Source of the DNA: Clostridium sp. AT4 | Lineage (GTDB): Bacteria > Bacillota > Clostridia > Lachnospirales > Lachnospiraceae | Length of the DNA stretch: 64,000 nucleotides | Direction: 5' to 3' | Assembly (NCBI RefSeq): GCF_001517625.2 | Contig: NZ_LN999828.1 | Coordinates: forward strand, 248,001-312,000 | Shown: piece after piece, positions 33,962 to 51,850 of the stretch | Layout of the letters: every line of letters starts with the position of its first letter | How positions within the stretch are numbered: position 1 is the first letter of the stretch | Position numbers and translations under genes: made by a program | The notes under the pieces: model-generated | The model's input: only the letters and a program-made list of their open reading frames with translations | Told to the model about the DNA's origin: nothing | The model's database searches: none

Positions 33962-34032
33962 AGGAAGATGGCAAGATTACCATATCTTAAAGAATAGGGA
34001 ATCTTGCCACCTTGAACAAAAGGAGTGAAGCG

Positions 34033-34460: not shown

Positions 34461-34505
34461 ATAATTGCCATATCTGGCGTTTTAAAATGAAGGAAAGGAG
34501 ATTTA

Positions 34506-35771: not shown

Positions 35772-35799
35772 AGGAGTTGTAGAAATCAAATCTATGATA

Positions 35800-35827
35800 A
35801 AAAAGCAAAGTTTAGACGTTGCTTTTT
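35800..35827 (+). terminator. Terminator of the MobV gene
   Basis: AAAAAGCAA/TTGCTTTTT stem (35800-35808, 35819-35827) 28 bp after the relaxase stop. The following AT-rich stretch to 36,050 has no supported gene; TATAAT at 36022-36027 is a candidate -10 for the first resistance gene. Confidence 0.65.
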
Positions 35828-36062
35828 GGGATTGTAAATCAAAGAGAATAGTTTTATATAGGAAAAGAGAGAAAATAGATTTGGCAGACCTTTGAGGATT
35901 AGGTGAATGCTCTGTAGGTAATGTGATATAAGAAAAGGTAAAATGAATTTTGTGGAAATATGCTTTACAAGGTTTAAGTAGGAACTCTGGAAAAAATCTT
36001 CCATTCTTTTTGTTGATGAAGTATAATGTAAGCAACAAATTTGAATTTTAAAAAGGAGTGTG

Positions 36063-36173
36063 ATGACCATGATTTTTGATTTTGAGCCTTGGCAATTAGA
36101 TATTGATATTGACTTAACTAAACAATTATATAGAAGTTGTAAAGGAGACTTTGTATGGGTAGAAAAGAAATAA
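36063..36173 (+). CDS. 36-codon leader ORF overlapping lnu, copy 1
   Basis: Reads MTMIFDFEPWQLDIDIDL, TKQLYRSCKGDFVWVEKK, stop. An AAAAGGAG site precedes ATG codons at 36063 and 36069. It overlaps the resistance gene start by 19 bp, and the lnu ribosome binding site lies inside it. Identical in all four copies. It could be a translational leader, or the remnant of a larger gene; there is no obvious attenuator hairpin. Confidence 0.45.
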   Translation: MTMIFDFEPWQLDIDIDLTKQLYRSCKGDFVWVEKK

Positions 36174-36646
36174 CAACAAAAGAAGATTTAATGAAAGTAA
36201 TAGAATTATTCGAAAATACTGGAATTACATACTGGTTGGATGGCGGATGGGGTGTAGATATTTTAGCTGGTAAACAAACAAGAATTCATAGAGATATAGA
36301 TATAAATTTTGATGCTCAACATACGGAAAAATTGTTAAATGTGCTTTTGAATCTGGGCTATAAAATTGATACAGACTGGAAACCGGTTAGAATAGAGTTA
36401 TATAGTGATGAACTTGGTTACTTAGACATTCACCCGTTCGTTTTAAATGAGGACGGAACTTCAAAACAAGCTGATTTAGAGGGTGGATGGTATGAGTTTG
36501 AAAAAGATTACTTTGGTAGTGTTTTTTTTGAAGGCAAAACAATTCCTTGTATATCTTTAAAAGGCCAAAAAGTTTTCCATTCAGGTTATGAATTAAGAGA
36601 TAAAGATAAGCATGATATTTCAATTCTTGAAAGTTTATCAAAATAA
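36155..36646 (+). CDS. Lincosamide nucleotidyltransferase, Lnu(A)/Lnu(C)-like, copy 1
   Basis: A 163-residue nucleotidyltransferase-fold protein: ITYWLDGGWGVDILAGKQTRIHRDIDINFDAQHTEKLL closely matches the Lnu(A) active-site region (GGWGVD and RDIDI carry the metal-binding Asp residues). LGYLDIHPF and HSGYELRDKDKHDI complete the family pattern. Inactivates lincomycin and clindamycin by adenylylation. AAAGGAG at 36140-36146. Strongly AT-rich. All four copies encode the identical protein. The exact class letter was not assigned. Confidence 0.88.
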   Translation: MGRKEITTKEDLMKVIELFENTGITYWLDGGWGVDILAGKQTRIHRDIDINFDAQHTEKLLNVLLNLGYKIDTDWKPVRIELYSDELGYLDIHPFVLNEDGTSKQADLEGGWYEFEKDYFGSVFFEGKTIPCISLKGQKVFHSGYELRDKDKHDISILESLSK

Positions 36647-36710
36647 CATCGCTGTAATTTCTAAGATAAATTGCAGTTTGTCGGTACGAAGAAAAAGGTG
36701 CAAAAATGTA

Positions 36711-36955
36711 TTGATAAGATTAGCGGTCAAGGCGAGAGGGAGTGAGGTGTAGATATTGACATCAAAAAGGCACTCCCTTATACTTGAGAGAAAAAGGTAA
36801 AAAAAACTCATTGATAAGATTAGCGGTCAAGGCGAGAGGGAGTGAGGTGTAGATATTGACACTCAAAAGGCACTCCCTTATACTTGACGGAAAAAGGTAA
36901 ACAAAACTCATTGATAAGATTAGCGGTCAAGGCGAGAGGGAGAGAGGAGCAAAAG
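36711..36955 (+). repeat. 100-bp direct repeats carrying tandem promoters, upstream of rep (unit 1)
   Basis: TTGATAAGATTAGCGGTCAA begins at 36711, 36811 and 36911: two full 100-bp repeats and a partial third that runs into the rep ribosome binding site. Each full repeat contains TTGACA, 17 bp and TATACT (36756-36761/36779-36784 and the same 100 bp on), plus a GGGAGTG/CACTCCC inverted repeat. They may act as iterons or origin and as doubled rep promoters. Confidence 0.75.
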
Positions 36956-36958
36956 ACT

Positions 36959-38734
36959 ATGGCAAAATACACCAAAAGGAGAGATAAAAGAGGGTATGAG
37001 TGGCAGTCTGCTTATCGGGAGAAAGAAGCCACTATGTTGGCGAGGGGATACCCGGAGGTAAGTCATCATGATTTCTATCGGGCGTTGCTTCCGGCTCGCA
37101 GTCTCCAGCAAGCGCCGGAGGACGGAAAAGGTAATATTATAGCGACACAGATTAGACCGTCTGGCAAAGGAAGAACCCGGCAGTGGGTAATTGATGATAG
37201 TCTGAAAATGCTGGATAAGGTCATAGGAGATAGGTTTGGGCTGATACCGCCTATTAGTTTTTACGGAAAGTCACACACGAAAGAGAACGCTCATGAGCTG
37301 TTTGCGGTGGTGGTGGACGTGGATTATGTAGGCAAACAGCAGTTAAAGAACCTGTTGAAGCAGTTTGGGAATGGTGTGCAGCTTCGTCCGACTTATCTTG
37401 TCAGCTCCGGCAAGGGGGTACATCTTTACTATTTCTTGCAGGAGCCGGTTCAGTTGTATCGAAACCGGGAAGAAGTGCTTGCGGAGCTGAAAGAAGCCTT
37501 TATCCGGCGGCTATGGAATGATACCAGCTCTATCCGTCCGGACAGCCCGGATATAACCGGAATTTATCAAGGTTTCCGGTGTGTGGGGAGTCAGTCGAAG
37601 CTGGGTGCAGATTTCCCAGTAAAAGCCTATAAGCTGTCAGAGAACCGTTACACGCTGGAGGACATAAAAGCCAGCATACCGAGCTGTAAGGTAGACCTTG
37701 CTCCGTTGTACGAGAAGCCGAGAAGAAAAAGTACCGTTACGCTGGAAGAAGCAAAGGAGCTGTACCCGGAATGGTATGAGAAGCGGATCGTGCAGGGAGA
37801 GCCGAAGCAGAAAAGTAAGAAGCAGGGCGGTACGTGGGTATGTAACGAAGCTTTATATGAGTGGTGGAAACGGAAAATAACCGAGGAAGTGAAAGCCGGA
37901 GGGCGTTACTTTTCTATTATGGCGTTGTGCTCTTATGGCTTGAAGTGTGGCATATCCGAGCAGAAGATACGGAGAGACGCCTATGCGTTCCTGGACCATT
38001 TAGAGAGCCTTACCGAGGACGAGGACAACCATTTCAGCCGGGCAGATGTGAAAGACGCTCTTCGGGCATTGAAAGGGGACAGAAAAAGGCTGTCAACGAT
38101 AGCAAGCCGGGAATGGATAGAGGACAACACAAGGGTTGCGATACCTGCAAATAAGCGGAATTACAGAAAGCAAAAAGACCATGTAAAGGTTATGAATACT
38201 ATGAAAGCTTTAAAAAAGCAGTTAGGAGAAGAAGTAAAAGAGGGTAGACCAAAAGGGAGTGGAACAGCGGAGCAGACAGTCAGAGAATGGCAGGAGAGCC
38301 ACCCAGCAGGAAAGAAAGCGGACTGCATTCGAGAGTCAGGATTGAGCAAGCGCGCCGTTTACAAGTGGGGGAAGGAGGGCATACTTGAAATGCCGAAAGG
38401 CATATGCTATAATGCCAGTAGGCAAGAAAGACGAAAGTGCTCATTGTGGCACGCAAAAAGCCCCGGAGGTCGCAACTCCGGGGCTTTTCTATTCCGTTGT
38501 GGCAAGGTGGCTTATTCCTTAGGCTGGCTACCGCCTATTTATCTCCGTCCAGCCATTTGCAGATGTAGTAGGCGACTACACTTGCCAAGACAGAGAGTAA
38601 GAAAGACGAAAATATACTCATGGTGGCACACCCCCTTTCTGTACCTGTATAGGGGTGGTAGCGTCGCTCATTATACCATAGTGGCAGAAATGCCACAAGA
38701 AGCCATTTCCCCTTGTTTATTATCAAAGCCATAA
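36959..38734 (+). CDS. Primase-like plasmid replication protein, stop codon lost (unit 1)
   Basis: The first 472 residues correspond to the intact family. An archaeo-eukaryotic-primase-like domain shows FAVVVDVDYVG (DxD), SSGKGVHLYYFL (His motif) and FRCVGSQSKLG. Then comes a PriCT-like helical region (GGRYFSIMALCSYGLKCGISEQKIRRDAYAFL), and a C-terminal helix-turn-helix (CIRESGLSKRAVYKW). Where other copies end in TGG AAG TAG, this one reads GGG AAG GAG, extending the protein by about 119 residues through the terminator region. Start ATG 36959 after GAGAGGAG. Confidence 0.75.
   Translation: MAKYTKRRDKRGYEWQSAYREKEATMLARGYPEVSHHDFYRALLPARSLQQAPEDGKGNIIATQIRPSGKGRTRQWVIDDSLKMLDKVIGDRFGLIPPISFYGKSHTKENAHELFAVVVDVDYVGKQQLKNLLKQFGNGVQLRPTYLVSSGKGVHLYYFLQEPVQLYRNREEVLAELKEAFIRRLWNDTSSIRPDSPDITGIYQGFRCVGSQSKLGADFPVKAYKLSENRYTLEDIKASIPSCKVDLAPLYEKPRRKSTVTLEEAKELYPEWYEKRIVQGEPKQKSKKQGGTWVCNEALYEWWKRKITEEVKAGGRYFSIMALCSYGLKCGISEQKIRRDAYAFLDHLESLTEDEDNHFSRADVKDALRALKGDRKRLSTIASREWIEDNTRVAIPANKRNYRKQKDHVKVMNTMKALKKQLGEEVKEGRPKGSGTAEQTVREWQESHPAGKKADCIRESGLSKRAVYKWGKEGILEMPKGICYNASRQERRKCSLWHAKSPGGRNSGAFLFRCGKVAYSLGWLPPIYLRPAICRCSRRLHLPRQRVRKTKIYSWWHTPFLYLYRGGSVAHYTIVAEMPQEAISPCLLSKP
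38455..38490 (+). terminator. Terminator downstream of rep (unit 1)
   Basis: AAAAAGCCCCGGAG/CTCCGGGGCTTTT (38455-38468, 38475-38487). Also at 43477-43512; in unit 3 (48499-48534) one stem base is altered. Confidence 0.85.
38535..38621 (-). CDS. 28-residue membrane peptide on the opposite strand (unit 1)
   Basis: Reads MSIFSSFLLSVLASVVAY then YICKWLDGDK: one hydrophobic helix with a charged C-terminus. Strong ribosome binding site AAAGGGGGTG, and its own minus-strand promoter: TTGTGG (38698-38693), 17 bp, TATAAT (38675-38670). Architecture recalls small type I toxin or holin-like peptides that stabilise plasmids, but no antisense RNA has been shown. One conservative change (L to I) in unit 2. 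Confidence 0.6.
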   Translation of the reverse strand: MSIFSSFLLSVLASVVAYYICKWLDGDK

Positions 38735-38736
38735 GG

Positions 38737-38790
38737 AAAAGAGTGTCAAGGGCGGTCATAGACCGCAGCGTTTACCCTTGATACTCTTTT
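38737..38790 (+). terminator. Stem-loop between peptide promoter and mob region (unit 1)
   Basis: AAAAGAGTGTCAAGGG (38737-38752) pairs with CCCTTGATACTCTTTT (38775-38790), with T-runs on both strands. A second small hairpin, TGGTC-TGC-GACCA plus T6, follows at 38889-38907. The 38,622-39,233 stretch holds these, the peptide promoter, the mob promoter and oriT. Confidence 0.7.
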
Positions 38791-39056
38791 TTGTTGGCTA
38801 TAATGCCGGAGGGGAAAACGGCTGTCCGTCCGTTCCGTTACTTCCCCCTGTGCTTCATTGTCCGTTCCGGCGGAAGAAAGTAAAGGGTGGTCTGCGACCA
38901 TTTTTTAGCTGCTGGACTCGCTGAGCAGCAAGCCTAAGCTCATACTGCAGATAAAAAACAAGCCCTTGACTTTCTTCCACCTACACTTCCAAAGTCGCCC
39001 AAGAAGAAGTAAGCTGCACTATATACTTGACAGAGTATACGCACGAATATATCCGC

Positions 39057-39175
39057 TTGATATAGGGTGTCTATCATGCTATAATATGTGTAGCGGATAT
39101 ATTGCAAGTTCCCTAAAGTGTTACCACTTTAGAACTTGTGAGGGTGGCAAGCCCCCCTTCAATCCCCCTTTTTAG
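39057..39175 (+). other. mob promoter and candidate oriT (unit 1)
   Basis: TTGATA (39057-39062), 17 bp, TATAAT (39080-39085) is a near-consensus promoter. Next is the imperfect inverted repeat AAGTTCCCTAAAGTG (39106-39120)/CACTTTAGAACTT (39125-39137), followed by GTGAGGGTGGCAAGCC and a C-rich tract. This is a plausible transfer origin for the MobC/MobA pair. Repeated at 44079-44197 and 49101-49219. Confidence 0.6.
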
Positions 39176-39233
39176 AGAGCCGAAAGGCTCATAATTTGAC
39201 GGTGGTAGCACCGAAGAAAGAGAGGTCAAAGGC

Positions 39234-39395
39234 ATGAAAAAAGAAATGGATAAAATTCAGTTTGAGTACAGATACGAGGTGCAGGAGCTGATGAAAGTAA
39301 TTGATAAATATGTAAAACAGAACCCGGCAGAAAAGGAAAATAAGACGCTGGAGCGTTTCTTTGACTTACTTGATGTCATGGATATGGAGTGGTAA
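39234..39395 (+). CDS. 53-residue helical protein before mobC (unit 1)
   Basis: Starts MKKEMDKIQFEYRYEVQ and ends FFDLLDVMDMEW; acidic and helical. AGAGAGGTC upstream, stop 4 bp before mobC. Identical in all three units. Function unknown, probably part of the mobilisation operon. Confidence 0.65.
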   Translation: MKKEMDKIQFEYRYEVQELMKVIDKYVKQNPAEKENKTLERFFDLLDVMDMEW

Positions 39396-39399
39396 GGGC

Positions 39400-39720
39400 A
39401 TGAACAAGACAAGACCAAAGCAGTTATCATTCCGAGTAAGTGAAGAAGAATACCAGCAGTTGCAGGAGAAGATTTCAGAGAGTGGAAAGAACCAGCAGGA
39501 GTATATCCTTTCCTGTGTGCTGGAGAAGCAGATCGTGAATACGGACGGTATCAAAGAACTTATCCCGGAACTGAAACGGATAGGGAACAACCTCAACCAA
39601 ATAGCAAAGAGGTGTAATGAGGGGGGAATGTTGCCGAGTGAAGCGGAAGTGCGGAAGCATGGAGAGGAGCTGAACAAAGTATGGCAGTCATTAAGGCGGT
39701 ATCTTCAAAGGCGGGCATAG
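39400..39720 (+). CDS. mobC: MobC relaxosome protein (unit 1)
   Basis: A 106-residue protein with the MobC pattern: RPKQLSFRVSEEEYQQLQEKISESGKNQQEYILSCVL, an RHH-like start, then ELIPELKRIGNNLNQIAKRCNEGG, the PF05713-type signature. Binds oriT and helps relaxase nicking. The ATG at 39400 is preferred over an upstream frame start at 39361. Its 3' end overlaps mobA by 40 bp. Identical in the three units. Confidence 0.9.
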   Translation: MNKTRPKQLSFRVSEEEYQQLQEKISESGKNQQEYILSCVLEKQIVNTDGIKELIPELKRIGNNLNQIAKRCNEGGMLPSEAEVRKHGEELNKVWQSLRRYLQRRA

Positions 39721-40790
39721 GGCACGCAATAGATTATGTGACGAAAAAAGAAAAGACAGAGGAGAAGCTTGTCAGCGGTCTGCATTGTGAGCCGGAGACG
39801 GTCAAGGAGGAAATGCAAGCCACAAAGGAGCTGTGGGGCAAGACGGACGGAAGAACCTATAAGCATTATGTGCAATCCTACCATGAGGACGAGGAAATAA
39901 CCCCGGAGCAGGCTCACAAGAACGCTGTCGAGCTGGCAGAGCATACAAAGGCATGGAAAGGGCATGAAGTTCTGATAGCCACGCATATAGACAAGGGGCA
40001 TATACACACGCACTTTATTGTCAATTCCGTAAATTATGAGAACGGTCATAAGCTCCAATGGAGTAAGCACGACCTTAAAGACTTAAAGGAACGGTGCAAC
40101 GAGCAGAGCTGGGAACAGGGCTTGCATGTGCCGGAGAAAGGAAAGACATTTGCTGGAGAAGTCCGGGAAGAAACGGTGGCATGGAGCAAAGACACCTACC
40201 AGCTTTTGAAACAGGCAGAGCAGGGAAAGGTCAAAAGCTATGTGCAGGATATTGCCCTTGCGGTGCTGGATTGTAAGGAAACAGCGACCAGCCGGGAAAC
40301 CTTTATCCGGCTGATGAATGAAAGAGGGTACGGGGTGGACTGGCAGGACAGCCACAAGTACATCACATATACCGACTTAGCCAGGGAACAGGCAGGAGAA
40401 AAGGCTTGTAAAATCAGGGATAACAAGCTGGAAAAATACTACAATATGGATTTTGGAAAGGAGAGTATGGAGCATGAGTTTGAGAGAAATGCACGAACAG
40501 CAGAAGCAGAGCAGTCCAAGAGAGCAGCTTCAAGAGTTAAACCGACAGAGCCGGACAGAGCTGGAAAACAGTCTGCTCAAAGAAGCGTTGGCGATGTCGA
40601 GCGAGAACTGCGAGGAATTGATGAAGCAGTCAAATCAAGAACAAGTGAGGGCAGAGCAGAACAGGCAGAGAGACGCAGAGCAGAACAGGAAGCTCATCAG
40701 CGAGCTGAAGCAGAGCGTAGAGCTGCTGAAGAACAGCAACGAATTGCTTCAAGACGCTATATCGGGCGAGATTGGGAGCCTGAAAGATGA
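39681..40790 (+). CDS. mobA: MobA relaxase (unit 1)
   Basis: A 369-residue MOBP-type relaxase (PF03432). N-terminus AVIKAVSSKAGIGHAIDYVTKK holds the catalytic-Tyr region, and the histidine triad is clear in ATHIDKGHIHTHFIVNSVN. The C-terminal 100 residues are Glu/Arg/Ala-rich coiled coil and are read from DNA that also encodes the mobB-like protein in another frame. Probably active in units 1 and 2. Confidence 0.92.
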   Translation: MAVIKAVSSKAGIGHAIDYVTKKEKTEEKLVSGLHCEPETVKEEMQATKELWGKTDGRTYKHYVQSYHEDEEITPEQAHKNAVELAEHTKAWKGHEVLIATHIDKGHIHTHFIVNSVNYENGHKLQWSKHDLKDLKERCNEQSWEQGLHVPEKGKTFAGEVREETVAWSKDTYQLLKQAEQGKVKSYVQDIALAVLDCKETATSRETFIRLMNERGYGVDWQDSHKYITYTDLAREQAGEKACKIRDNKLEKYYNMDFGKESMEHEFERNARTAEAEQSKRAASRVKPTEPDRAGKQSAQRSVGDVERELRGIDEAVKSRTSEGRAEQAERRRAEQEAHQRAEAERRAAEEQQRIASRRYIGRDWEPER

Positions 40791-41046
40791 GGTTAAGGAA
40801 AACACCGTCCAAGAGGTTAGAAAGGCGTTACAGGCGAATATAGAGGCTATACAGAGGGCTACAAAGCTTCTTGAGAAGCAGTCTGATACACTTACGAGCG
40901 TGATGAAGCAGAAGATGCGGGAGCTTGAGGAAAGTAAGAGCAGTTTTTTTAGATATGAGGGCTTGAAGTTGTACCTGTTTTGGGGCGGTATGGTCTGCAA
41001 TATTTTAGTGTTTCTTATGCTGTTGTATGGTATGAGTAGTAAGTAA
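40474..41046 (+). CDS. MobB-like coiled-coil membrane protein overlapping mobA (unit 1)
   Basis: A 190-residue protein starting MSLREMHEQQKQSSPREQLQ. Long Gln/Glu-rich coiled coil (about 10-150), then one transmembrane helix near the C-terminus (LYLFWGGMVCNILVFLMLLYG). The first 317 bp are nested in mobA in a different frame. Layout resembles MobB/MbeB-type accessory proteins that anchor the relaxosome at the membrane. AAAGGAG lies about 15 bp upstream. Confidence 0.75.
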   Translation: MSLREMHEQQKQSSPREQLQELNRQSRTELENSLLKEALAMSSENCEELMKQSNQEQVRAEQNRQRDAEQNRKLISELKQSVELLKNSNELLQDAISGEIGSLKDEVKENTVQEVRKALQANIEAIQRATKLLEKQSDTLTSVMKQKMRELEESKSSFFRYEGLKLYLFWGGMVCNILVFLMLLYGMSSK

Positions 41047-41084
41047 AAAGAAATCGATAAATTAGAATTTTAAAAAGGAGTGTG

Positions 41085-41195
41085 ATGACCATGATTTTTG
41101 ATTTTGAGCCTTGGCAATTAGATATTGATATTGACTTAACTAAACAATTATATAGAAGTTGTAAAGGAGACTTTGTATGGGTAGAAAAGAAATAA
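41085..41195 (+). CDS. Leader ORF overlapping lnu, copy 2
   Basis: Same 36 codons as the copy at 36063. Here it lies about 40 bp downstream of the mobB-like gene, so lnu copy 2 can be reached by readthrough from the mob operon. Confidence 0.42.
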   Translation: MTMIFDFEPWQLDIDIDLTKQLYRSCKGDFVWVEKK

Positions 41196-41668
41196 CAACA
41201 AAAGAAGATTTAATGAAAGTAATAGAATTATTCGAAAATACTGGAATTACATACTGGTTGGATGGCGGATGGGGTGTAGATATTTTAGCTGGTAAACAAA
41301 CAAGAATTCATAGAGATATAGATATAAATTTTGATGCTCAACATACGGAAAAATTGTTAAATGTGCTTTTGAATCTGGGCTATAAAATTGATACAGACTG
41401 GAAACCGGTTAGAATAGAGTTATATAGTGATGAACTTGGTTACTTAGACATTCACCCGTTCGTTTTAAATGAGGACGGAACTTCAAAACAAGCTGATTTA
41501 GAGGGTGGATGGTATGAGTTTGAAAAAGATTACTTTGGTAGTGTTTTTTTTGAAGGCAAAACAATTCCTTGTATATCTTTAAAAGGCCAAAAAGTTTTCC
41601 ATTCAGGTTATGAATTAAGAGATAAAGATAAGCATGATATTTCAATTCTTGAAAGTTTATCAAAATAA
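41177..41668 (+). CDS. Lincosamide nucleotidyltransferase, copy 2
   Basis: Protein identical to copy 1 (36155-36646). Joins units 1 and 2. The upstream AT tract differs from copy 1 at two sites (ATAAATTAG instead of ACAAATTTG). Confidence 0.88.
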   Translation: MGRKEITTKEDLMKVIELFENTGITYWLDGGWGVDILAGKQTRIHRDIDINFDAQHTEKLLNVLLNLGYKIDTDWKPVRIELYSDELGYLDIHPFVLNEDGTSKQADLEGGWYEFEKDYFGSVFFEGKTIPCISLKGQKVFHSGYELRDKDKHDISILESLSK

Positions 41669-41732
41669 CATCGCTGTAATTTCTAAGATAAATTGCAGTT
41701 TGTCGGTACGAAGAAAAAGGTGCAAAAATGTA

Positions 41733-41977
41733 TTGATAAGATTAGCGGTCAAGGCGAGAGGGAGTGAGGTGTAGATATTGACATCAAAAAGGCACTCCCT
41801 TATACTTGAGAGAAAAAGGTAAAAAAAACTCATTGATAAGATTAGCGGTCAAGGCGAGAGGGAGTGAGGTGTAGATATTGACACTCAAAAGGCACTCCCT
41901 TATACTTGACGGAAAAAGGTAAAAAAAACTCATTGATAAGATTAGCGGTCAAGGCGAGAGGGAGTGAGGTGCAAAAG
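41733..41977 (+). repeat. 100-bp promoter repeats upstream of rep (unit 2)
   Basis: Same arrangement as in unit 1, with repeat starts at 41733, 41833 and 41933. The third, partial repeat keeps GGGAGTGAGGTG before the rep start, whereas unit 1 has GGGAGAGAGGAG. Confidence 0.72.
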
Positions 41978-41980
41978 ACT

Positions 41981-43399
41981 ATGGCAAAATACACCAAAAG
42001 GAGAGATAAAAGAGGGTATGAGTGGAAGTCTGCTTATCGGGAGAAAGAAGCCCTTATGTTGGAGAGGGGATACCCGGAAGTAAGTCCTCATGATTTCGAT
42101 CGGGAGTTGTTTCCGGCTGGCAGTCTCCAGCAAGAGCCGGAGGACGGAAAAGGTAATATTATAGCGACACAGATTAGACCGTCTGGCAAAGGAAGAACCC
42201 GGCAGTGGGTAATTGATGATAGTCTGAAAATGCTGGATAAGGTCATAGGAGATAGGTTTGGGCTGATACCGCCTATTAGTGTTTACGGAAAGTCACACAC
42301 GAAAGAGAGCGCTCATGAGCTGTTTGCGGTGGTGGTGGACGTGGATTAGGTAGGCAAACAGCAGTTAAAGAACCTGTTGAAGCAGTTTGGGAATGGTGTG
42401 CAGCTTCGTCCGACTTATCTTGTCAGCGCCGGCGAGGGGGTACATCTTTACTATTTCTTGCAGGAGCCGGTTCAGTTGTATCGAAACCGGGAAGAAGTGC
42501 TTGCGGAGCTGAAAGAAGCCTTTATCCGGCGGCTATGGAATGATACCAGCTCTATCCGTCCGGACAGCCCGGATATAACCGGAATTTATCAAGGTTTCCG
42601 GTGTGTGGGGAGTCAGTCGAAGCTGGGTGCAGACTTCCCAGTAAAAGCCTATAAGCTGTCAGAGAACCGTTACACGCTGGAGGACATAAAAGCCAGCATA
42701 CCGAGCTGTAAGGTAGACCTTGCTCCGTTGTACGAGAAGCCGAGAAGAAAAAGTACCGTTACGCTGGAAGAAGCAAAGGAGCTGTACCCGGAATGGTATG
42801 AGAAGCGGATCGTGCAGGGAGAGCCGAAGCAGAAAAGTAAGAAGCAGGGCGGTACGTGGGTATGTAACGAAGCTTTATATGAGTGGTGGAAACGGAAAAT
42901 AACCGAGGAAGTGAAAGCCGGAGGGCGTTACTTTTCTATTATGGCGTTGTGCTCTTATGGCTTGAAGTGTGGCATATCCGAGCAGAAGATACGGAGAGAC
43001 GCCTATGCGTTCCTGGACCATTTAGAGAGCCTTACCGAGGACGAGGACAACCATTTCAGCCGGGCAGATGTGAAAGACGCTCTTCGGGCATTGAAAGGGG
43101 ACAGAAAAAGGCTGTCAACGATAGCAAGCCGGGAATGGATAGAGGACAACACAAAGGTTACGATACCAGCAAATAAGCGGAATTACAGAAAGCAAAAAGA
43201 CCATGTAAAGGTTATGAATACTATGAAAGCTTTAAAAAAGCAGTTAGGAGAAGAAGTAAAAGAGGGTAGACCAAAAGGGAGTGGAACAGCGGAGCAGACA
43301 GTCAGAGAATGGCAGGAGAGCCACCCAGCAGGAAAGAAAGCGGACTGCATTCGAGAGACAGGATTGAGCAAGCCCACCGTTTACAAGTGGTGGAAGTAG
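41981..43399 (+). pseudogene. Rep gene with premature stop (unit 2)
   Basis: The 473-codon frame keeps the natural end (VYKWWK, stop at 43397-43399) but codon 123 is TAG: GTGGATTAGGTAGGC, where unit 1 has GTGGATTATGTAGGC. The stop falls directly after the DxD motif of the primase-like domain, so the product would be inactive unless restart or suppression occurs. Other changes (SSGKG to SAGEG at the His-motif loop) also hit conserved positions. Confidence 0.82.
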
Positions 43400-43556
43400 G
43401 GCATACTTGAAATGCCGAAAGGCATATGCTATAATGCCAGTAGGCAAGAAAGACGAAAGTGCTCATTGTGGCACGCAAAAAGCCCCGGAGGTCGCAACTC
43501 CGGGGCTTTTCTATTCCGTTGTGGCAAGGTGGCTTATTCCTTAGGCTGGCTACCGC

Positions 43557-43643
43557 CTATTTATCTCCGTCCAGCCATTTGCAGATGTAGTAGGCGACTA
43601 CACTTGCCAAGACAGAGAGTATGAAAGACGAAAATATACTCAT
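43557..43643 (-). CDS. 28-residue membrane peptide (unit 2)
   Basis: MSIFSSFILSVLASVVAY then YICKWLDGDK; one Leu-to-Ile change from unit 1. Ribosome binding site conserved. Confidence 0.58.
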   Translation of the reverse strand: MSIFSSFILSVLASVVAYYICKWLDGDK

Positions 43644-44255
43644 GGTGGCACACCCCCTTTCTGTACCTGTATAGGGGCGGCAGCGTCGCTCATCATACCA
43701 TAGTGGTAGAAATGCCACAAGAAGCCATTTCCCCTTGTTTATTATCAAAGCCATAAGGAAAAGAGTGCCAAGGGCGGTCATAGACCGCAGCGTTCACCCT
43801 TGACACTCTTTTTTGTTGGCTATAATGCCGGAGGGGAAAACGGCTGTCCGTCCGTTCCGTTACTTCCCCCTGTGCTTCATTGTCCGTTCCGGCGGAAGAA
43901 AGTAAAGGGTGGTCTGCGACCATTTTTTATCTGCTGTACTCGCTGATCGGCAAGCCGAAGCTCATACTGCAGATAAAAAACAAGCCCTTGACTTTCTTCC
44001 ACCTACACTTCCAAAGTCGCCCAAGAGGAAGTAAGCTCCACTATATTCTTGGCAGAATATACGCACGAATATATCCGCTTGATATAGGGTGTCTATCATG
44101 CTATAATATGTGTAGCGGATATATTGCAAGTTCCCTAAAGTGTTACCACTTTAGAACTTGTGAGGGTGGCAAGCCCCCCTTCAATCCCCCTTTTTAGAGA
44201 GCCGAAAGGCTCATAATTTGACGGTGGTAGCACCGAAGAAAGAGAGGTCAAAGGC

Positions 44256-44417
44256 ATGAAAAAAGAAATGGATAAAATTCAGTTTGAGTACAGATACGAG
44301 GTGCAGGAGCTGATGAAAGTAATTGATAAATATGTAAAACAGAACCCGGCAGAAAAGGAAAATAAGACGCTGGAGCGTTTCTTTGACTTACTTGATGTCA
44401 TGGATATGGAGTGGTAA
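44256..44417 (+). CDS. 53-residue helical protein before mobC (unit 2)
   Basis: Identical to the unit 1 protein at 39234-39395. The promoter and oriT-like region precedes it at 44079-44197. Confidence 0.63.
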   Translation: MKKEMDKIQFEYRYEVQELMKVIDKYVKQNPAEKENKTLERFFDLLDVMDMEW

Positions 44418-44421
44418 GGGC

Positions 44422-44742
44422 ATGAACAAGACAAGACCAAAGCAGTTATCATTCCGAGTAAGTGAAGAAGAATACCAGCAGTTGCAGGAGAAGATTTCAG
44501 AGAGTGGAAAGAACCAGCAGGAGTATATCCTTTCCTGTGTGCTGGAGAAGCAGATCGTGAATACGGACGGTATCAAAGAACTTATCCCGGAACTGAAACG
44601 GATAGGGAACAACCTCAACCAAATAGCAAAGAGGTGTAATGAAGGGGGAATGTTGCCGAGTGAAGCGGAAGTGCGGAAGCATGGAGAGGAGCTGAACAAA
44701 GTATGGCAGTCATTAAGGCGGTATCTTCAAAGGCGGGCATAG
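44422..44742 (+). CDS. mobC: MobC relaxosome protein (unit 2)
   Basis: Same protein as in unit 1; one silent change (GAG to GAA). Overlaps mobA by 40 bp. Confidence 0.9.
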   Translation: MNKTRPKQLSFRVSEEEYQQLQEKISESGKNQQEYILSCVLEKQIVNTDGIKELIPELKRIGNNLNQIAKRCNEGGMLPSEAEVRKHGEELNKVWQSLRRYLQRRA

Positions 44743-45812
44743 GGCACGCCATAGATTATGTGACGAAAAAAGAAAAGACAGAGGAGAAGCTTGTCAGTGG
44801 TCTGCATTGTGAGCCGGAGACGGTCAAGGAGGAAATGCAAGCCACAAAGGAGCTGTGGGGCAAGACGGACGGAAGAACCTATAAGCATTATGTGCAATCC
44901 TACCATAAGAACGAGGAAATAACCCCGGAGCAGGCTCACAAGAACGCTGTCGAGCTGGCAGAGCATACAAAGGCATGGAAAGGGCATGAAGTTCTGATAG
45001 CCACGCATATAGACAAGGGGCATATACACACGCACTTTATTGTCAATTCCGTAAATTATGAGAACGGTCATAAGCTCCAATGGAGTAAGCACGACCTTAA
45101 AGACTTAAAGGAACGGTGCAACGAGCAGAGCTGGGAACAGGGCTTGCATGTGCCGGAGAAAGGAAAGACATTTGCTGGAGAAGTCCGGGAAGAAACGGTG
45201 GGATGGAGCAAAGACACCTACCAGCTTTTGAAACAGGCAGAGCAGGGAAAGGTCAAAAGCTATGTGCAGGATATTGCCCTTGCGGTGCTGGATTGTAAGG
45301 AAACAGCGACCAGCCGGGAAACCTTTATCCGGCTGATGAATGAAAGAGGGTACGGGGTGGACTGGCAGGACAGCCACAAGTACATCACATATACCGACTT
45401 AGCCAGGGAACAGGCAGGAGAAAAGGCTTGTAAAATCAGGGATAACAAGCTGGAAAAATACTACAATATGGATTTTGGAAAGGAGAGTATGGAGCATGAG
45501 TTTGAGAGAAATGCACGAACAGCAGAAGCAGAGCAGTCCAAGAGAGCAGCTTCAAGAGTTAAACCGACAGAGCCGGACAGAGCTGGAAAACAGTCTGCTC
45601 AAAGAAGCGTTGGCGATGTCGAGCGAGAACTGCGAGGAATTGATGAAGCAGTCAAATCAAGAACAAGTGAGGGCAGAGCAGAACAGGCAGAGAGACGCAG
45701 AGCAGAACAGGAAGCTCATCAGCGAGCTGAAGCAGAGCGTAGAGCTGCTGAAGAACAGCAACGAATTGCTTCAAGACGCTATATCGGGCGAGATTGGGAG
45801 CCTGAAAGATGA
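44703..45812 (+). CDS. mobA: MobA relaxase (unit 2)
   Basis: Full-length relaxase with the HIDKGHIHTHF triad intact. Differs from unit 1 by few substitutions (SYHKNEE for SYHEDEE, VGWSK for VAWSK). Confidence 0.92.
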   Translation: MAVIKAVSSKAGIGHAIDYVTKKEKTEEKLVSGLHCEPETVKEEMQATKELWGKTDGRTYKHYVQSYHKNEEITPEQAHKNAVELAEHTKAWKGHEVLIATHIDKGHIHTHFIVNSVNYENGHKLQWSKHDLKDLKERCNEQSWEQGLHVPEKGKTFAGEVREETVGWSKDTYQLLKQAEQGKVKSYVQDIALAVLDCKETATSRETFIRLMNERGYGVDWQDSHKYITYTDLAREQAGEKACKIRDNKLEKYYNMDFGKESMEHEFERNARTAEAEQSKRAASRVKPTEPDRAGKQSAQRSVGDVERELRGIDEAVKSRTSEGRAEQAERRRAEQEAHQRAEAERRAAEEQQRIASRRYIGRDWEPER

Positions 45813-46068
45813 GGTTAAGGAAAACACCGTCCAAGAGGTTAGAAAGGCGTTACAGGCGAATATAGAGGCTATACAGAGGGCTACAAAGCTTCTTGAGAAG
45901 CAGTCTGATACACTTACGAGCGTGATGAAGCAGAAGATCCGGGAGCTTGAGGAAAGTAAGAACAGTTTTTTTAGATATGAGGGCTTGAAGTTGTACCTGT
46001 TTTGGGGCGGTATGGTCTGCAATATTTTAGTGTTTCTTATGCTGTTGTATGGTATGATTAGTAAGTAA
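45496..46068 (+). CDS. MobB-like coiled-coil membrane protein (unit 2)
   Basis: Same as unit 1 with small C-terminal changes (IRELEESKNSFFRYEG, YGMISK). Overlaps mobA by 317 bp in another frame. Confidence 0.75.
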   Translation: MSLREMHEQQKQSSPREQLQELNRQSRTELENSLLKEALAMSSENCEELMKQSNQEQVRAEQNRQRDAEQNRKLISELKQSVELLKNSNELLQDAISGEIGSLKDEVKENTVQEVRKALQANIEAIQRATKLLEKQSDTLTSVMKQKIRELEESKNSFFRYEGLKLYLFWGGMVCNILVFLMLLYGMISK

Positions 46069-46106
46069 AAAGAAATCGATAAATTAGAATTTTAAAAAGG
46101 AGTGTG

Positions 46107-46217
46107 ATGACCATGATTTTTGATTTTGAGCCTTGGCAATTAGATATTGATATTGACTTAACTAAACAATTATATAGAAGTTGTAAAGGAGACTTTGTAT
46201 GGGTAGAAAAGAAATAA
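46107..46217 (+). CDS. Leader ORF overlapping lnu, copy 3
   Basis: Identical to the other leader copies. Confidence 0.42.
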   Translation: MTMIFDFEPWQLDIDIDLTKQLYRSCKGDFVWVEKK

Positions 46218-46690
46218 CAACAAAAGAAGATTTAATGAAAGTAATAGAATTATTCGAAAATACTGGAATTACATACTGGTTGGATGGCGGATGGGGTGTA
46301 GATATTTTAGCTGGTAAACAAACAAGAATTCATAGAGATATAGATATAAATTTTGATGCTCAACATACGGAAAAATTGTTAAATGTGCTTTTGAATCTGG
46401 GCTATAAAATTGATACAGACTGGAAACCGGTTAGAATAGAGTTATATAGTGATGAACTTGGTTACTTAGACATTCACCCGTTCGTTTTAAATGAGGACGG
46501 AACTTCAAAACAAGCTGATTTAGAGGGTGGATGGTATGAGTTTGAAAAAGATTACTTTGGTAGTGTTTTTTTTGAAGGCAAAACAATTCCTTGTATATCT
46601 TTAAAAGGCCAAAAAGTTTTCCATTCAGGTTATGAATTAAGAGATAAAGATAAGCATGATATTTCAATTCTTGAAAGTTTATCAAAATAA
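46199..46690 (+). CDS. Lincosamide nucleotidyltransferase, copy 3
   Basis: Protein identical to copies 1, 2 and 4. Joins units 2 and 3. Confidence 0.88.
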   Translation: MGRKEITTKEDLMKVIELFENTGITYWLDGGWGVDILAGKQTRIHRDIDINFDAQHTEKLLNVLLNLGYKIDTDWKPVRIELYSDELGYLDIHPFVLNEDGTSKQADLEGGWYEFEKDYFGSVFFEGKTIPCISLKGQKVFHSGYELRDKDKHDISILESLSK

Positions 46691-46754
46691 CATCGCTGTA
46701 ATTTCTAAGATAAATTGCAGTTTGTCGGTACGAAGAAAAAGGTGCAAAAATGTA

Positions 46755-46999
46755 TTGATAAGATTAGCGGTCAAGGCGAGAGGGAGTGAGGTGTAGATAT
46801 TGACATCAAAAAGGCACTCCCTTATACTTGAGAGAAAAAGGTAAAAAAAACTCATTGATAAGACTAGAGGTCAAGGCGAGAGGGAGCGAGGTGCAGATAT
46901 TGACACTCAAAAGGCACTCCCTTATACTTGACGGAAAAAGGTAAAAAAAACTCATTGATAAGATTAGCGGTCAAGGCGAGAGGGAGTGAGGTGCAAAAG
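46755..46999 (+). repeat. 100-bp promoter repeats upstream of rep (unit 3)
   Basis: Repeat starts at 46755, 46855 and 46955. The second repeat has a few substitutions (GACTAGAGGTC for GATTAGCGGTC) but keeps TTGACA and TATACT. Confidence 0.7.
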
Positions 47000-47002
47000 A
47001 CT

Positions 47003-48421
47003 ATGGCAAAATACACCAAAAGGAGAGATAAAAGAGGGTATGAGTGGAAGTCTGCTTATCGGGAGAAAGAAGCCCTTATGTTGGAGAGGGGATACCCGGA
47101 AGTAAGTCCTCATGATTTCTATCGGGAGTTGTTTCCGGCTGGCAGTCTCCAGCAAGAGCCGGAGGACGGAAAAGGCAATATTATAGCGACACAGATTAGA
47201 CCGCCCGGCAAAGGAAGAACCCGGCAGTGGGTAATTGATGATAGTTTGAAAATGCTGGATAAGGTCATAGGAGATAGGTTTGGGCTGATACCGCCTATTA
47301 GTTTTTACGGAAAGTCACACACGAAAGAGAACGCTCATGAGCTGTTTGCGGTGGTGGTGGACGTGGATTATGTAGGCAAACAGCAGTTAAAGAACCTGTT
47401 GAAGCAGTTTGGGAATGGTGTGCAGCTTCGTCCGACTTATCTTGTCAGCTCCGGCAAGGGGGTACATCTTTACTATTTCTTGCAGGAGCCGGTTCAGTTG
47501 TATCGAAACCGGGAAGAAGTGCTTGCGGAGCTGAAAGAAGCCTTTATCCGACGGCTATGGAATGATATCAGCTCTATCCGTCCGGAGAGCCAGGATATAA
47601 CGGGAGTATATAAAGGTTTCCGAAGTGTGGGGAGTCAGTCGAAGCTGGGTGCAGATTTCTCAGTAAAAGCCTATAAGCTGTCTGAGAACCGTTACACGCT
47701 GGAGGACATAAAAGCCAGCATACCGAGCTGTAAGGTAGACCTGGCTCCGTTGTACGATAAGACGAGAAGAAAAAGCAGCGTTACGCTCGACGAAGCAAAG
47801 GAGCTGTACCCGGAATGGTATGAGAAGCGGATCGTGCAGGGAGAGCCGAAGCAGAAAAGTAAGAAGCAGGGCGGTACGTGGGTATGTAACGCAGCATTTC
47901 ATGAGTGGCGGAAACGGAAAATAACCGAGGAAGTGAAAGCCGGAGGGCGTTACTTTTCTATTATGGCGTTGTGCTCTTATGGCTTGAAGTGTGGCATATC
48001 TGAGCAGAAGATACGGAGAGACGCCTATGCGTTCCTGGACCATTTAGAGAGCCTTACCGAGGACGAGGACAACCATTTCAGCCGGGCAGATGTGAAAGTC
48101 GCTCTTCGGGCATTGTTACGGGACAGTAAAAGGCTCTAAAAGAAAGCAAGCCGGGATTGGATAGAGGACAACACTAAGGTTACGATACCAGCTAATAAGC
48201 GGAATTACACAAAGCAAAAAGACCACGTCAAGGTTATACATACTATGAACGCTTTAAAAAAGCAGTTAGGAGAAGAAGTGAAAGTGGGGAGAACAAACGG
48301 GAGGGGAACAGCGGAGCAGATAGTCAGAGAAATGCAGGTGAGCCACCCAGCAGGAAAGAAAGCGGACTGCATTCGAGAGACAGGATTGAGCAAGCCCACC
48401 GTTTACAAGTGGTGGAAGTAG
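47003..48421 (+). pseudogene. Rep gene with multiple lesions (unit 3)
   Basis: Frame is open to a TAA at 48137-48139 (AGGCTCTAAAAG, where units 1 and 2 read AGGCTGTCAACG), truncating the protein to 378 residues and removing the C-terminal helix-turn-helix. Many further substitutions flank the stop. The original stop position (48419-48421) is still present. Confidence 0.8.
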
Positions 48422-48578
48422 GGCATACTTGATACGCAGAAAAGCATATGCTATAGCGCCAGTAGGCATGCCCGACGAAAGTGCTCATTGTTGCACGCAA
48501 AAAGCCCCGGAGGTCGCAACTCCGGTGCTTTTCTATTCCGATGTGCCACGGTGGCTTATTCCTTAGGCTGGCTCCTGC

Positions 48579-48665
48579 ATATTTCTCGCCGTCCAGCCAT
48601 TTGCCGACGTAGTAGGCGACTACTCTTTCCTAGACAGAGCGTACGAAACACCAAACTATACTCAT
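48579..48665 (-). pseudogene. Broken 28-residue membrane peptide (unit 3)
   Basis: Corresponds to the small peptide gene of units 1 and 2, but substitutions change the helix (MSIVWCFVRSV) and introduce a stop after 11 codons. Confidence 0.6.
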
Positions 48666-49277
48666 GGTGTCAGACCCCCTCTCTGTCCCTGTATAGGGGT
48701 GGTACCGTCGCTCATTATACCATAGTGGCAGACATGCCACCAGAAGCCATTTCCCCTTGTTTATTATCAAAGCCACAAGGAAATGAGTGCCAACGGCGGT
48801 CATAGACCGCAGCGTTTACCCTTGATACTCTTTTTTGTTGTCTATAATGCCGGAGGGGAAAACGTCTGTCCGTCCGTTCCGTTACTTCCCCCTGTGCTTC
48901 ATTGCCCGTTCCGGCGGAAGAAAGTAAAGGGTGGTCTGCGACCCTTTTTTATCTGCTGCACTCGCTGATCGGCAAGACGAAGCTCAAACTGCTGATAAAA
49001 AACAAGCCCTTGACTTTCTTCCACCTACACTTCCAAAGTCGCCCAAGAGGAAGTAAGCTCCACTATATTCTTTTCATAATATACTCACTAATATATCCGC
49101 TTTATATAGGGTGTCTATCATGCTATAATATGTGTAGCGGATATATTGCAAGTTCCCTAAAGTGTTACCACTTTAGAACTTGTGAGGGTGGCAAGCCCCC
49201 CTTCAATCCCCCTTTTTAGAGAGCCGAAAGGCTCATAATTTGACGGTGGTAGCACCGAAGAAAGAGAGGTCAAAGGC

Positions 49278-49439
49278 ATGAAAAAAGAAATGGATAAAAT
49301 TCAGTTTGAGTACAGATACGAGGTGCAGGAGCTGATGAAAGTAATTGATAAATATGTAAAACAGAACCCGGCAGAAAAGGAAAATAAGACGCTGGAGCGT
49401 TTCTTTGACTTACTTGATGTCATGGATATGGAGTGGTAA
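49278..49439 (+). CDS. 53-residue helical protein before mobC (unit 3)
   Basis: Identical to the unit 1 and 2 proteins. Confidence 0.63.
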   Translation: MKKEMDKIQFEYRYEVQELMKVIDKYVKQNPAEKENKTLERFFDLLDVMDMEW

Positions 49440-49443
49440 GGGC

Positions 49444-49764
49444 ATGAACAAGACAAGACCAAAGCAGTTATCATTCCGAGTAAGTGAAGAAGAATACCAG
49501 CAGTTGCAGGAGAAGATTTCAGAGAGTGGAAAGAACCAGCAGGAGTATATCCTTTCCTGTGTGCTGGAGAAGCAGATCGTGAATACGGACGGTATCAAAG
49601 AACTTATCCCGGAACTGAAACGGATAGGGAACAACCTCAACCAAATAGCAAAGAGGTGTAATGAGGGGGGAATGTTGCCGAGTGAAGCGGAAGTGCGGAA
49701 GCATGGAGAGGAGCTGAACAAAGTATGGCAGTCATTAAGGCGGTATCTTCAAAGGCGGGCATAG
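49444..49764 (+). CDS. mobC: MobC relaxosome protein (unit 3)
   Basis: Identical to unit 1. Intact even though mobA downstream is broken. Confidence 0.9.
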   Translation: MNKTRPKQLSFRVSEEEYQQLQEKISESGKNQQEYILSCVLEKQIVNTDGIKELIPELKRIGNNLNQIAKRCNEGGMLPSEAEVRKHGEELNKVWQSLRRYLQRRA

Positions 49765-50834
49765 GGCACGCAATAGATTATGTGACGAAAAAAGAAAAGA
49801 CAGAGGAGAAGCTTGTCAGCGGTCTGCATTGTGAGCCGGAGACGGTCAAGGAGGAAATGCAAGCCACAAAGGAGCTGTGGGGCAAGACGGACGGAAGAAC
49901 CTATAAGCATTATGTGCAATCCTACCATGAGGACGCGGAAATAACACCGGAGCAGGCCCACAAGAACGCTGTCGCGCTGGCGGAGCATATGAAGGCATGG
50001 TGAGGGCATGCAGTTCTGATGGACACGAACATAGAAAAGGGGCATATACATACGCAACTTAGTGTCAATGACGTTAACTAAGAGAACGCTCCTAGGCTCC
50101 AATGGAGTAAGAACGTCCTTAACGACTTACAGGAACGGTGCCACGAGCAGAGCTGGGAACAGGGCTTGCATGTGCCGGAGAAAGGAAAGACATTTGCTGG
50201 AGAAGTCCGGGAAGAAACGGTGGCATGGAGCAAAGACACCTACCAGCTTTTGAAACAGGCAGAGCAGGGAAAGGTCAAAAGCTATGTGCAGGATATTGCC
50301 CTTGCGGTGCTGGATTGTAAGGAAACAGCGACCAGCCGGGAAACCTTTATCCGGCTGATGAATGAAAGAGGGTACGGGGTGGACTGGCAGGACAGCCACA
50401 AGTACATCACATATACCGACTTAGCCAGGGAACAGGCAGGAGAAAAGGCTTGTAAAATCAGGGATAACAAGCTGGAAAAATACTACAATATGGATTTTGG
50501 AAAGGAGAGTATGGAGCATGAGTTTGAGAGAAATGCACGAACAGCAGAAGCAGAGCAGTCCAAGAGAGCAGCTTCAAGAGTTAAACCGACAGAGCCGGAC
50601 AGAGCTGGAAAACAGTCTGCTCAAAGAAGCGTTGGCGATGTCGAGCGAGAACTGCGAGGAATTGATGAAGCAGTCAAATCAAGAACAAGTGAGGGCAGAG
50701 CAGAACAGGCAGAGAGACGCAGAGCAGAACAGGAAGCTCATCAGCGAGCTGAAGCAGAGCGTAGAGCTGCTGAAGAACAGCAACGAATTGCTTCAAGACG
50801 CTATATCGGGCGAGATTGGGAGCCTGAAAGATGA
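49725..50834 (+). pseudogene. mobA: mobA with clustered lesions (unit 3)
   Basis: Identical to the other units for about 80 codons, then a stop (GCATGGTGAGGG at about 50,000; the others read GCATGGAAAGGG) and roughly 30 substitutions within 150 bp. These destroy the histidine triad (CATATACACACGCAC becomes CATATACATACGCAA) and add another stop. From about 50,160 the sequence is again intact. Confidence 0.82.
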
Positions 50835-51090
50835 GGTTAAGGAAAACACCGTCCAAGAGGTTAGAAAGGCGTTACAGGCGAATATAGAGGCTATACAGAG
50901 GGCTACAAAGCTTCTTGAGAAGCAGTCTGATACACTTACGAGCGTGATGAAGCAGAAGATCCGGGAGCTTGAGGAAAGTAAGAACAGTTTTTTTAGATAT
51001 GAGGGCTTGAAGTTGTACCTGTTTTGGGGCGGTATGGTCTGCAATATTTTAGTGTTTCTTATGCTGTTGTATGGTATGATTAGTAAGTAA
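50518..51090 (+). CDS. MobB-like coiled-coil membrane protein (unit 3)
   Basis: Identical to the unit 2 version; lies in the undamaged 3' part of mobA. Confidence 0.73.
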   Translation: MSLREMHEQQKQSSPREQLQELNRQSRTELENSLLKEALAMSSENCEELMKQSNQEQVRAEQNRQRDAEQNRKLISELKQSVELLKNSNELLQDAISGEIGSLKDEVKENTVQEVRKALQANIEAIQRATKLLEKQSDTLTSVMKQKIRELEESKNSFFRYEGLKLYLFWGGMVCNILVFLMLLYGMISK

Positions 51091-51128
51091 AAAGAAATCG
51101 ACAAATTTGAATTTTAAAAAGGAGTGTG

Positions 51129-51239
51129 ATGACCATGATTTTTGATTTTGAGCCTTGGCAATTAGATATTGATATTGACTTAACTAAACAATTATATAGA
51201 AGTTGTAAAGGAGACTTTGTATGGGTAGAAAAGAAATAA
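51129..51239 (+). CDS. Leader ORF overlapping lnu, copy 4
   Basis: Identical to the other leader copies. Its upstream tract is a hybrid: plasmid-type GAAATCG followed by the copy 1-type ACAAATTTG. Confidence 0.42.
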   Translation: MTMIFDFEPWQLDIDIDLTKQLYRSCKGDFVWVEKK

Positions 51240-51712
51240 CAACAAAAGAAGATTTAATGAAAGTAATAGAATTATTCGAAAATACTGGAATTACATACTG
51301 GTTGGATGGCGGATGGGGTGTAGATATTTTAGCTGGTAAACAAACAAGAATTCATAGAGATATAGATATAAATTTTGATGCTCAACATACGGAAAAATTG
51401 TTAAATGTGCTTTTGAATCTGGGCTATAAAATTGATACAGACTGGAAACCGGTTAGAATAGAGTTATATAGTGATGAACTTGGTTACTTAGACATTCACC
51501 CGTTCGTTTTAAATGAGGACGGAACTTCAAAACAAGCTGATTTAGAGGGTGGATGGTATGAGTTTGAAAAAGATTACTTTGGTAGTGTTTTTTTTGAAGG
51601 CAAAACAATTCCTTGTATATCTTTAAAAGGCCAAAAAGTTTTCCATTCAGGTTATGAATTAAGAGATAAAGATAAGCATGATATTTCAATTCTTGAAAGT
51701 TTATCAAAATAA
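51221..51712 (+). CDS. Lincosamide nucleotidyltransferase, copy 4
   Basis: Protein identical to copies 1-3. This is the right-hand junction of the array: the match to the other units ends about 36 bp after the stop codon (GCAGTTTG), where element 1 sequence resumes (GAGAATTGAAAA). Confidence 0.88.
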   Translation: MGRKEITTKEDLMKVIELFENTGITYWLDGGWGVDILAGKQTRIHRDIDINFDAQHTEKLLNVLLNLGYKIDTDWKPVRIELYSDELGYLDIHPFVLNEDGTSKQADLEGGWYEFEKDYFGSVFFEGKTIPCISLKGQKVFHSGYELRDKDKHDISILESLSK

Positions 51713-51791
51713 CATCGCTGTAATTTCTAAGATAAATTGCAGTTTGGAGAATTGAAAAAAACGGAATTTACCTATTAAGACATATAAATTC

Positions 51792-51846
51792 TTGACAATA
51801 AAGCTCCTATATAGTATGTTTTTAATAAACTACTATATAGGAGCTT
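51792..51846 (+). promoter_or_regulatory. Operator/promoter of the MarR-radical SAM operon
   Basis: TTGACA (51792-51797) is followed by a perfect 16-bp inverted repeat, AAGCTCCTATATAGTA (51801-51816) and its complement (51831-51846). The repeat covers the -10 region, and its right arm contains the AGGAGC ribosome binding site of marR. MarR binding would block the promoter; in RNA the same repeat could hide the ribosome binding site. Confidence 0.8.
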
Positions 51847-51850
51847 TTGT

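What the first reader, a model, noticed from the sequence alone, without database searches (positions are those of the whole stretch)
36155..51712. Three exact 5,022-bp tandem copies of a resistance-plasmid-like unit with four identical lnu genes
The lnu start codons lie at 36155, 41177, 46199 and 51221, spaced exactly 5,022 bp. Each unit has rep, repeats, oriT, mobC, mobA and a mobB-like gene: the content of a complete small mobilizable plasmid, without an integrase. A chromosomal tandem plasmid multimer would raise resistance-gene dosage, could expand or contract by recombination, and could release circles.
Basis: partly seen in the sequence, partly recalled or inferred. Interest (0 to 1): 0.88.

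Follow-up and report, generated by a model that had tools for sequence, protein, structure and literature searches.

The report
Resistance plasmid likely threaded into chromosome
The sequence shows three similar but not identical head-to-tail copies of a small gut-bacterial plasmid with a predicted lincosamide-resistance gene inside a chromosomal mobile element; because the copies differ in a way that ordinary evolution does not explain, the array is likely an assembly product that joined a free plasmid to a chromosomal copy of the same gene.

Summary
Four identical lnu genes spaced exactly 5,022 bp are in the window. The three units between them are not exact: 55, 168 and 182 substitutions separate the pairs, with no indels. 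The unit is a real plasmid: a Hominisplanchenecus faecis contig closes to a 5,022-bp circle with lnu and the same backbone, and this genome holds a separate 6,754-bp erm(B) sister plasmid. The four cassettes share an identical 638-bp core and lie in a 25-kb integrative element at guaA, so the cassette is where array and chromosome join. Whether the array exists is doubtful. Most private substitutions are transversion-rich, indel-free and absent from relatives, and some break rep and mobA. Most contig ends of this assembly lie in repeats, some in rRNA, yet rRNA copies carry no such noise. I favour an assembly join of a free plasmid and one chromosomal cassette (0.55) over true integration by homologous recombination (0.38); raw reads would decide. 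In passing: a tet gene interrupts mobA of the same plasmid family in S. suis, with a 5-bp repeat at its edges.

The parts
30456..55423 (+). Integrative mobilizable element at the 3' end of guaA; holds the array
   Evidence: 11-bp repeat at 30456-30466 and 55413-55423, both also in relative L136; integrase, NikA-like, AAA_25 and Mob_Pre proteins
31386..32471 (+). tyrosine integrase of the element
   Evidence: PF00589, 66.7 bits against cut-off 27.1
34506..35771 (+). Mob_Pre (MobV-like) relaxase of the element
   Evidence: PF01076, 73.6 bits against cut-off 25.5; the NCBIfam MobV model stays below its cut-off
36035..36680 (+). first lnu cassette (lnu 36155-36646), at the left flank
   Evidence: 646-bp exact match to the fourth cassette; lnu related to Lnu(AN2) and Lnu(A)
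36043..41064 (+). unit A: lnu, direct repeats, rep (stop lost), mobC-like, mobA 39681-40790, mobB-like 40474-41046
   Evidence: 5,022-bp period; 40 differences to the free plasmid L049
41065..46086 (+). unit B, closest to the free plasmid; rep with a premature stop
   Evidence: 27 differences to L049
46087..51108 (+). unit C, noisiest; rep and mobA with premature stops
   Evidence: 156 differences to L049
41724..42023 (+). three direct repeats of about 100 bp before rep (copy B), iteron-like
   Evidence: role not tested
51101..51746 (+). fourth lnu cassette (lnu 51221-51712), at the right flank; its left edge is like the first cassette, not like cassettes 2 and 3
51747..53885 (+). right flank: radical SAM mobile pair cassette (MarR-type regulator, pair A, pair B); right limit approximate
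   Evidence: TIGR04472, TIGR04471, TIGR04470 over their cut-offs; same block of about 2.14 kb in relatives

Best explanation
The array is likely an assembly product: a free 5,022-bp mobilizable plasmid carrying a predicted lincosamide nucleotidyltransferase gene (lnu) was probably threaded three times into a chromosomal mobile element that carries the same lnu cassette. Shown: the unit exists elsewhere as a 5,022-bp circle; the four cassettes share an identical 638-bp core; a sister plasmid of the same family is a separate circle in this assembly; the three units differ by indel-free substitutions that relatives seldom share. Inferred: the strain has one chromosomal cassette (left flank, lnu, radical SAM cassette) plus a free plasmid. 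In an assembly graph the shared cassette is a branch point with a plasmid loop, and the contig path went round the loop three times, partly through poor alternative sequence. Untested: read support and true copy number. The plasmid itself would replicate through rep and its repeats and would be mobilized by its own relaxase with the help of another element.
For: Free 5,022-bp circle L049. Sister plasmid C1 assembled apart, and no separate contig for the lnu plasmid itself, as expected if it was drawn into C7. Ten of 34 related loci are small contigs with matching ends, each with one mobA. Private substitutions: 32 (A), 19 (B), 146 (C), of which 1, 8 and 18 occur in any of the relatives compared; C 41 transitions to 105 transversions and no gap, while natural relatives show more transitions and 3-74 gap openings in six of seven comparisons. 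Stops in rep and mobA. 23S and 16S copies of the same genome are clean. 12 of 14 contig ends, the two of circular C1 included, share terminal sequence with another end, four of them 285 bp beyond a 23S gene. The fourth cassette carries the left-edge bases of the first, as sequence from a one-cassette chromosome would leave.
Against: A plain graph loop would give identical units; the source of the private changes was not found. The longest stretch common to all three units is 777 bp, so if the differences are real, this assembly could have crossed the array even though it breaks at rRNA; one rRNA operon is crossed inside C7. Unit B's changes look more natural (13 transitions, 6 transversions; 8 of 19 seen in relatives). 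The edge of the fourth cassette could also come from short gene conversion. No reads were seen and the assembly method is not known.
Confidence: 0.55

Rival explanations
1. True integration: the plasmid recombined by a single RecA-type crossover into the identical lnu cassette of the chromosomal element, and a multimer or later unequal crossing-over gave about three tandem units and four lnu genes. The array could then grow, shrink and release circles.
For: The anatomy is what a single crossover predicts: whole units between cassettes with an identical 638-bp core, flanked by element sequence on both sides. The same cassette also occurs in a chromosomal contig without the plasmid (G160). A plasmid both free and integrated is on record for S. 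aureus pUR3912 (PMC8545097, keyword passages).
Against: The private substitutions do not look like evolution; none of the ten related small contigs with matching ends holds a second mobA; the left edge of the fourth cassette is not the plasmid type expected from a simple crossover.
Confidence: 0.38
2. Old decaying array: a true integrate whose rep and mob genes lost function by neutral mutation while lnu was kept by selection or gene conversion.
For: All lnu copies are identical while rep and mobA are broken in some units.
Against: All three units together depart from a free plasmid of another genus at only 6 clustered sites, which leaves little time; no indels and more transversions than transitions in A and C; blocks of 736 and 561 bp outside lnu are also unchanged.
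Confidence: 0.04

Closest known systems
Small mobilizable plasmids of Lachnospiraceae and relatives (L049, L034, L035, L039; C1 of this genome)
   Same: L049: same size, same lnu, same backbone, no gap. The others: same mob genes and, in those four, the same kind of rep at 93-97% in the aligned parts
   Different: Small contigs with one copy each; cargo next to the mobB-like gene differs, e.g. erm(B) in C1
tet-associated backbone pieces in Campylobacter plasmids (e.g. NC_006135.1; known as pTet, recalled) and Streptococcus suis phage-like elements
   Same: Pieces of the same backbone, mostly at 95-100% identity
   Different: Backbone broken up inside larger elements; at most 48% of the unit in one place of the listed plasmid records. 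Among the 34 genome-contig loci the lnu part matched only L048 and L049
Chromosomally integrated resistance plasmids: S. aureus pUR3912 (PMC8545097) and a Salmonella IncHI2 integrate (PMC9019673)
   Same: A resistance plasmid joined to the chromosome; homologous recombination between shared elements is described for release of the Salmonella one (keyword passages only)
   Different: The bridge there is IS26 or Tn1721 in Salmonella; for pUR3912 the passages did not show the mechanism; no three-fold tandem array in the passages seen

Membership tests
Small mobilizable plasmid | Circular, small, own relaxase with accessory mob gene | tested here: met
   L049 closes to 5,022 bp; relaxase PF03432 114.5 bits, NikA-like PF21983 79.5 bits. 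Circularity rests on matching contig ends
Small mobilizable plasmid | oriT nicked by the relaxase | tested here: inconclusive
   Inverted repeats upstream of mobC only
Small mobilizable plasmid | Replication protein of a known family | tested here: not met
   No Pfam or NCBIfam match at E 0.001 for the C1 rep, no meaningful solved relative; only named repA in some listed plasmid records
Chromosomal plasmid integrate by homologous recombination | Whole units flanked by identical cassettes shared with the target | tested here: met
   Cassette identity and flanks; an assembly join gives the same picture
Chromosomal plasmid integrate by homologous recombination | Physical link of unit and chromosome in single molecules | not testable with these tools
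   No reads available
Lnu(AN2) | NCBIfam score over the curated cut-off | tested here: not met
   253 bits against cut-off 340; Lnu(A) 198.7 against 300. Related to solved lincosamide resistance proteins 4wh5 and 4fo1: a lincosamide nucleotidyltransferase-like protein, not filed under a named type
Integrative mobilizable element at guaA (host element) | Integrase, relaxase and flanking att repeats with one copy at the target gene | tested here: met
   Integrase and Mob_Pre relaxase; 11-bp repeat at 30456 and 55413, both also in L136
Integrative mobilizable element at guaA (host element) | Excision and transfer | not testable with these tools
   Sequence only

The most novel reading that the evidence does not exclude
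The array is real and its units are diversified in place by a local, substitution-only mutation process that spares the lnu cassette, a block around the mobC start and a block over the end of mobA and mobB, so that a resistance plasmid parked in the chromosome keeps its resistance gene identical while its replication and transfer genes are scrambled.
Probability: 0.03. Interest if true: 0.85.

Novelty: new member of a known kind. Interest (0 to 1): 0.28.

Why it matters
Taken at face value the array would be read as resistance-gene amplification in a gut bacterium; the sequence itself shows that it should not be counted so without reads. What stands is a family of small plasmids that carries different resistance genes (lnu, erm(B)) among gut genera and has left pieces in Campylobacter and Streptococcus elements. 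The lnu cassette shared by plasmid and chromosome is a plausible recombination bridge and, equally, a trap for assemblers.

Tried and rejected
Templated origin of the private substitutions: no relative shares more than a few, no register shift or strand of the plasmid or window explains them, and BLAST of four patches of C and one of A against the loci then held found nothing closer than the plasmid itself or C1. Read-phasing errors (private base equals its neighbour): not enriched. General assembly noise in repeats: not seen in rRNA copies. Private sites fall in 32 runs by unit against a mean of 83 in 5,000 shuffles: patches, but without a source. A sparing of k-mer-length gaps between variable sites: what uniform placement would give. 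Copy counts in other genomes were not used, since those searches also under-counted the copies in the window's own genome.

Literature: the searches found no paper; some searches listed general precedents or unrelated papers. Only PMC8545097 and PMC9019673 were opened, by keyword passages. This is not a claim that the plasmid is unpublished.

Full report
What is in the sequence. The window is bases 248001-312000 of contig C7 (2.15 Mb) of a 3.41-Mb, 7-contig genome, 97.2% complete. Its family appears to be Lachnospiraceae: the genome G043, in the same family, holds a stretch found letter for letter in L049 of Hominisplanchenecus faecis, which belongs there. From 36043 the sequence repeats with a period of exactly 5,022 bp: units A (36043-41064), B (41065-46086) and C (46087-51108), then a fourth lnu cassette to 51746. 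The four lnu products are identical. The units are not: A/B differ at 55, B/C at 168 and A/C at 182 positions, all substitutions.

What the unit is. One unit holds lnu, three direct repeats of about 100 bp, rep (472 aa in L049, 475 aa in C1), a NikA/MobC-like protein, a 369-aa MobA/VirD2-type relaxase and a mobB-like protein. A scan of genome contigs with the relaxase gave 34 loci. Ten of these 34 have matching ends of 38-127 bp and look circular: L033-L036, L038-L040 and L049-L051; L035 and L036 are the same sequence in two records. L049 is 5,099 bp with a 77-bp end overlap, so 5,022 bp, and aligns to the whole unit without a gap; it differs from A, B and C at 40, 27 and 156 positions. The window's own genome holds a sister plasmid, C1: 6,754 bp after its 127-bp end overlap is removed, with the same backbone at 89-98% in the aligned parts, an erm(B) gene (562.6 bits, cut-off 525) and a transposase piece that I would call IS256-like (not tested). 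The cargo beside the mobB-like gene differs from plasmid to plasmid.

Where the array sits. An 11-bp repeat at 30456 (3' end of guaA; the gene name is from reading the protein) and 55413 bounds an element with a tyrosine integrase, a NikA-like gene, an AAA ATPase and a Mob_Pre relaxase. A relative contig, L136, has the same left part at 96.6%, the repeat at its start and again at the right end, and other cargo in place of the array. To the right of the array lies a separate cassette, the 'radical SAM mobile pair' of NCBIfam. Of 397 family genomes, this one included, 26 match that stretch; in the 14 relatives held as loci (L081-L094, up to 1.5 kb on each side) lnu was not next to it. The lnu cassette was found in 7 of 397 family genomes at E 1e-100, this one included. 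Apart from this genome the whole cassette occurs in G043 (the free plasmid) and in G160, where it lies in a 436-kb contig, in the same 14-kb stretch as two serine-recombinase-like proteins (named by eye) and without the plasmid.

Why the array is doubtful. At 197 of the 201 sites where the units differ, the free plasmid agrees with two of the three units. Private changes number 32 in A, 19 in B and 146 in C; 1, 8 and 18 of them occur in at least one relative compared (some of those loci are duplicates). C has 41 transitions and 105 transversions. The free plasmid compared with C1, L034, L035, L039, L040 and L033 shows more transitions than transversions in each of the six, with 3 to 74 gap openings, while L042 has too few changes (3 and 3, one gap) to tell. 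Between the units there is no gap at all. Changes in rep, summed over the three units, fall at codon positions 1, 2 and 3 in 26, 22 and 33 cases, though C alone leans to position 3 (14, 14, 29). They put stops into rep (B, C) and mobA (C) and remove the stop of rep (A); intact copies exist in L049 and C1. Unit B is the exception: 13 transitions to 6 transversions, and 8 of 19 alleles seen in relatives. Other repeats of the genome are clean: five 23S genes differ at 0 or 1 of 2,884 positions and two 16S genes are identical.

What the assembly can resolve. Twelve of 14 contig ends, counting the two ends of C1, share terminal sequence with another end; four of them end 285 bp beyond a 23S gene. 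C4 ends in an rRNA operon; the end of C7 was not found in the other stretches compared. One rRNA operon is crossed inside C7. This looks like a graph assembly, and C1's 127-bp overlap fits a common k-mer size (recalled). In such a graph a cassette present in both chromosome and plasmid is a branch with a loop. A second hint is the edge of the fourth cassette: it carries the left-edge bases of the first, not those of cassettes 2 and 3, so that first and fourth match over 646 bp. Sequence from a chromosome with one cassette would leave this mark; short gene conversion in a true integrate could too.

The other side. If the differences are real, the longest stretch common to all three units is 777 bp, which even this assembly could cross, so its failure at rRNA does not by itself exclude the array. 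A plain loop would give identical units, and I found no source for the private changes. The anatomy fits integration by homologous recombination well, and integrated plasmids are documented (keyword passages). I therefore give 0.55 to an assembly join, 0.38 to true integration, 0.04 to an old decaying array and 0.03 to a local mutation process.

Verdict. The unit is a genuine small mobilizable plasmid with a predicted lincosamide-resistance gene; the chromosome very likely carries the same cassette inside an element at guaA; the three-fold array is not safe to use as evidence for gene amplification.

Noticed in passing
L046:4719-8939 (S. suis HN129); same edge in 19 of 20 loci listed: mobA of the same plasmid family is interrupted at one site; in L046 the 3.07-kb insert holds a TetM/W/O/S-family gene (1311.7 bits, cut-off 1100) and 5 bp of mobA are repeated on both sides. 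Both sides were seen in L046 and L060 only, and the insert was read in L046 only. One old insertion could explain the mob pieces around tet genes in Campylobacter and Streptococcus.
   Followed up: partly
G000 contig C1 (L009), 6,881 bp: Separate sister plasmid of the same family with erm(B) in the same genome; 6,754 bp as a circle.
   Followed up: yes
51747-53885: Radical SAM mobile pair cassette (MarR-type regulator, pair A, pair B), a block of about 2.14 kb at 90-99% identity in many Lachnospiraceae genomes.
   Followed up: partly
55424-about 60906: A second element with an integrase (55486-56604, minus), an HTH-like gene, a CHC2 zinc-finger protein and a MobA/MobL protein directly follows the right repeat: apparently tandem elements at guaA.
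   Followed up: no
L133:6750-7394: The same lnu cassette (99.7%) in a chromosomal contig of G160, in the same 14-kb stretch as two serine-recombinase-like proteins, without the plasmid.
   Followed up: partly
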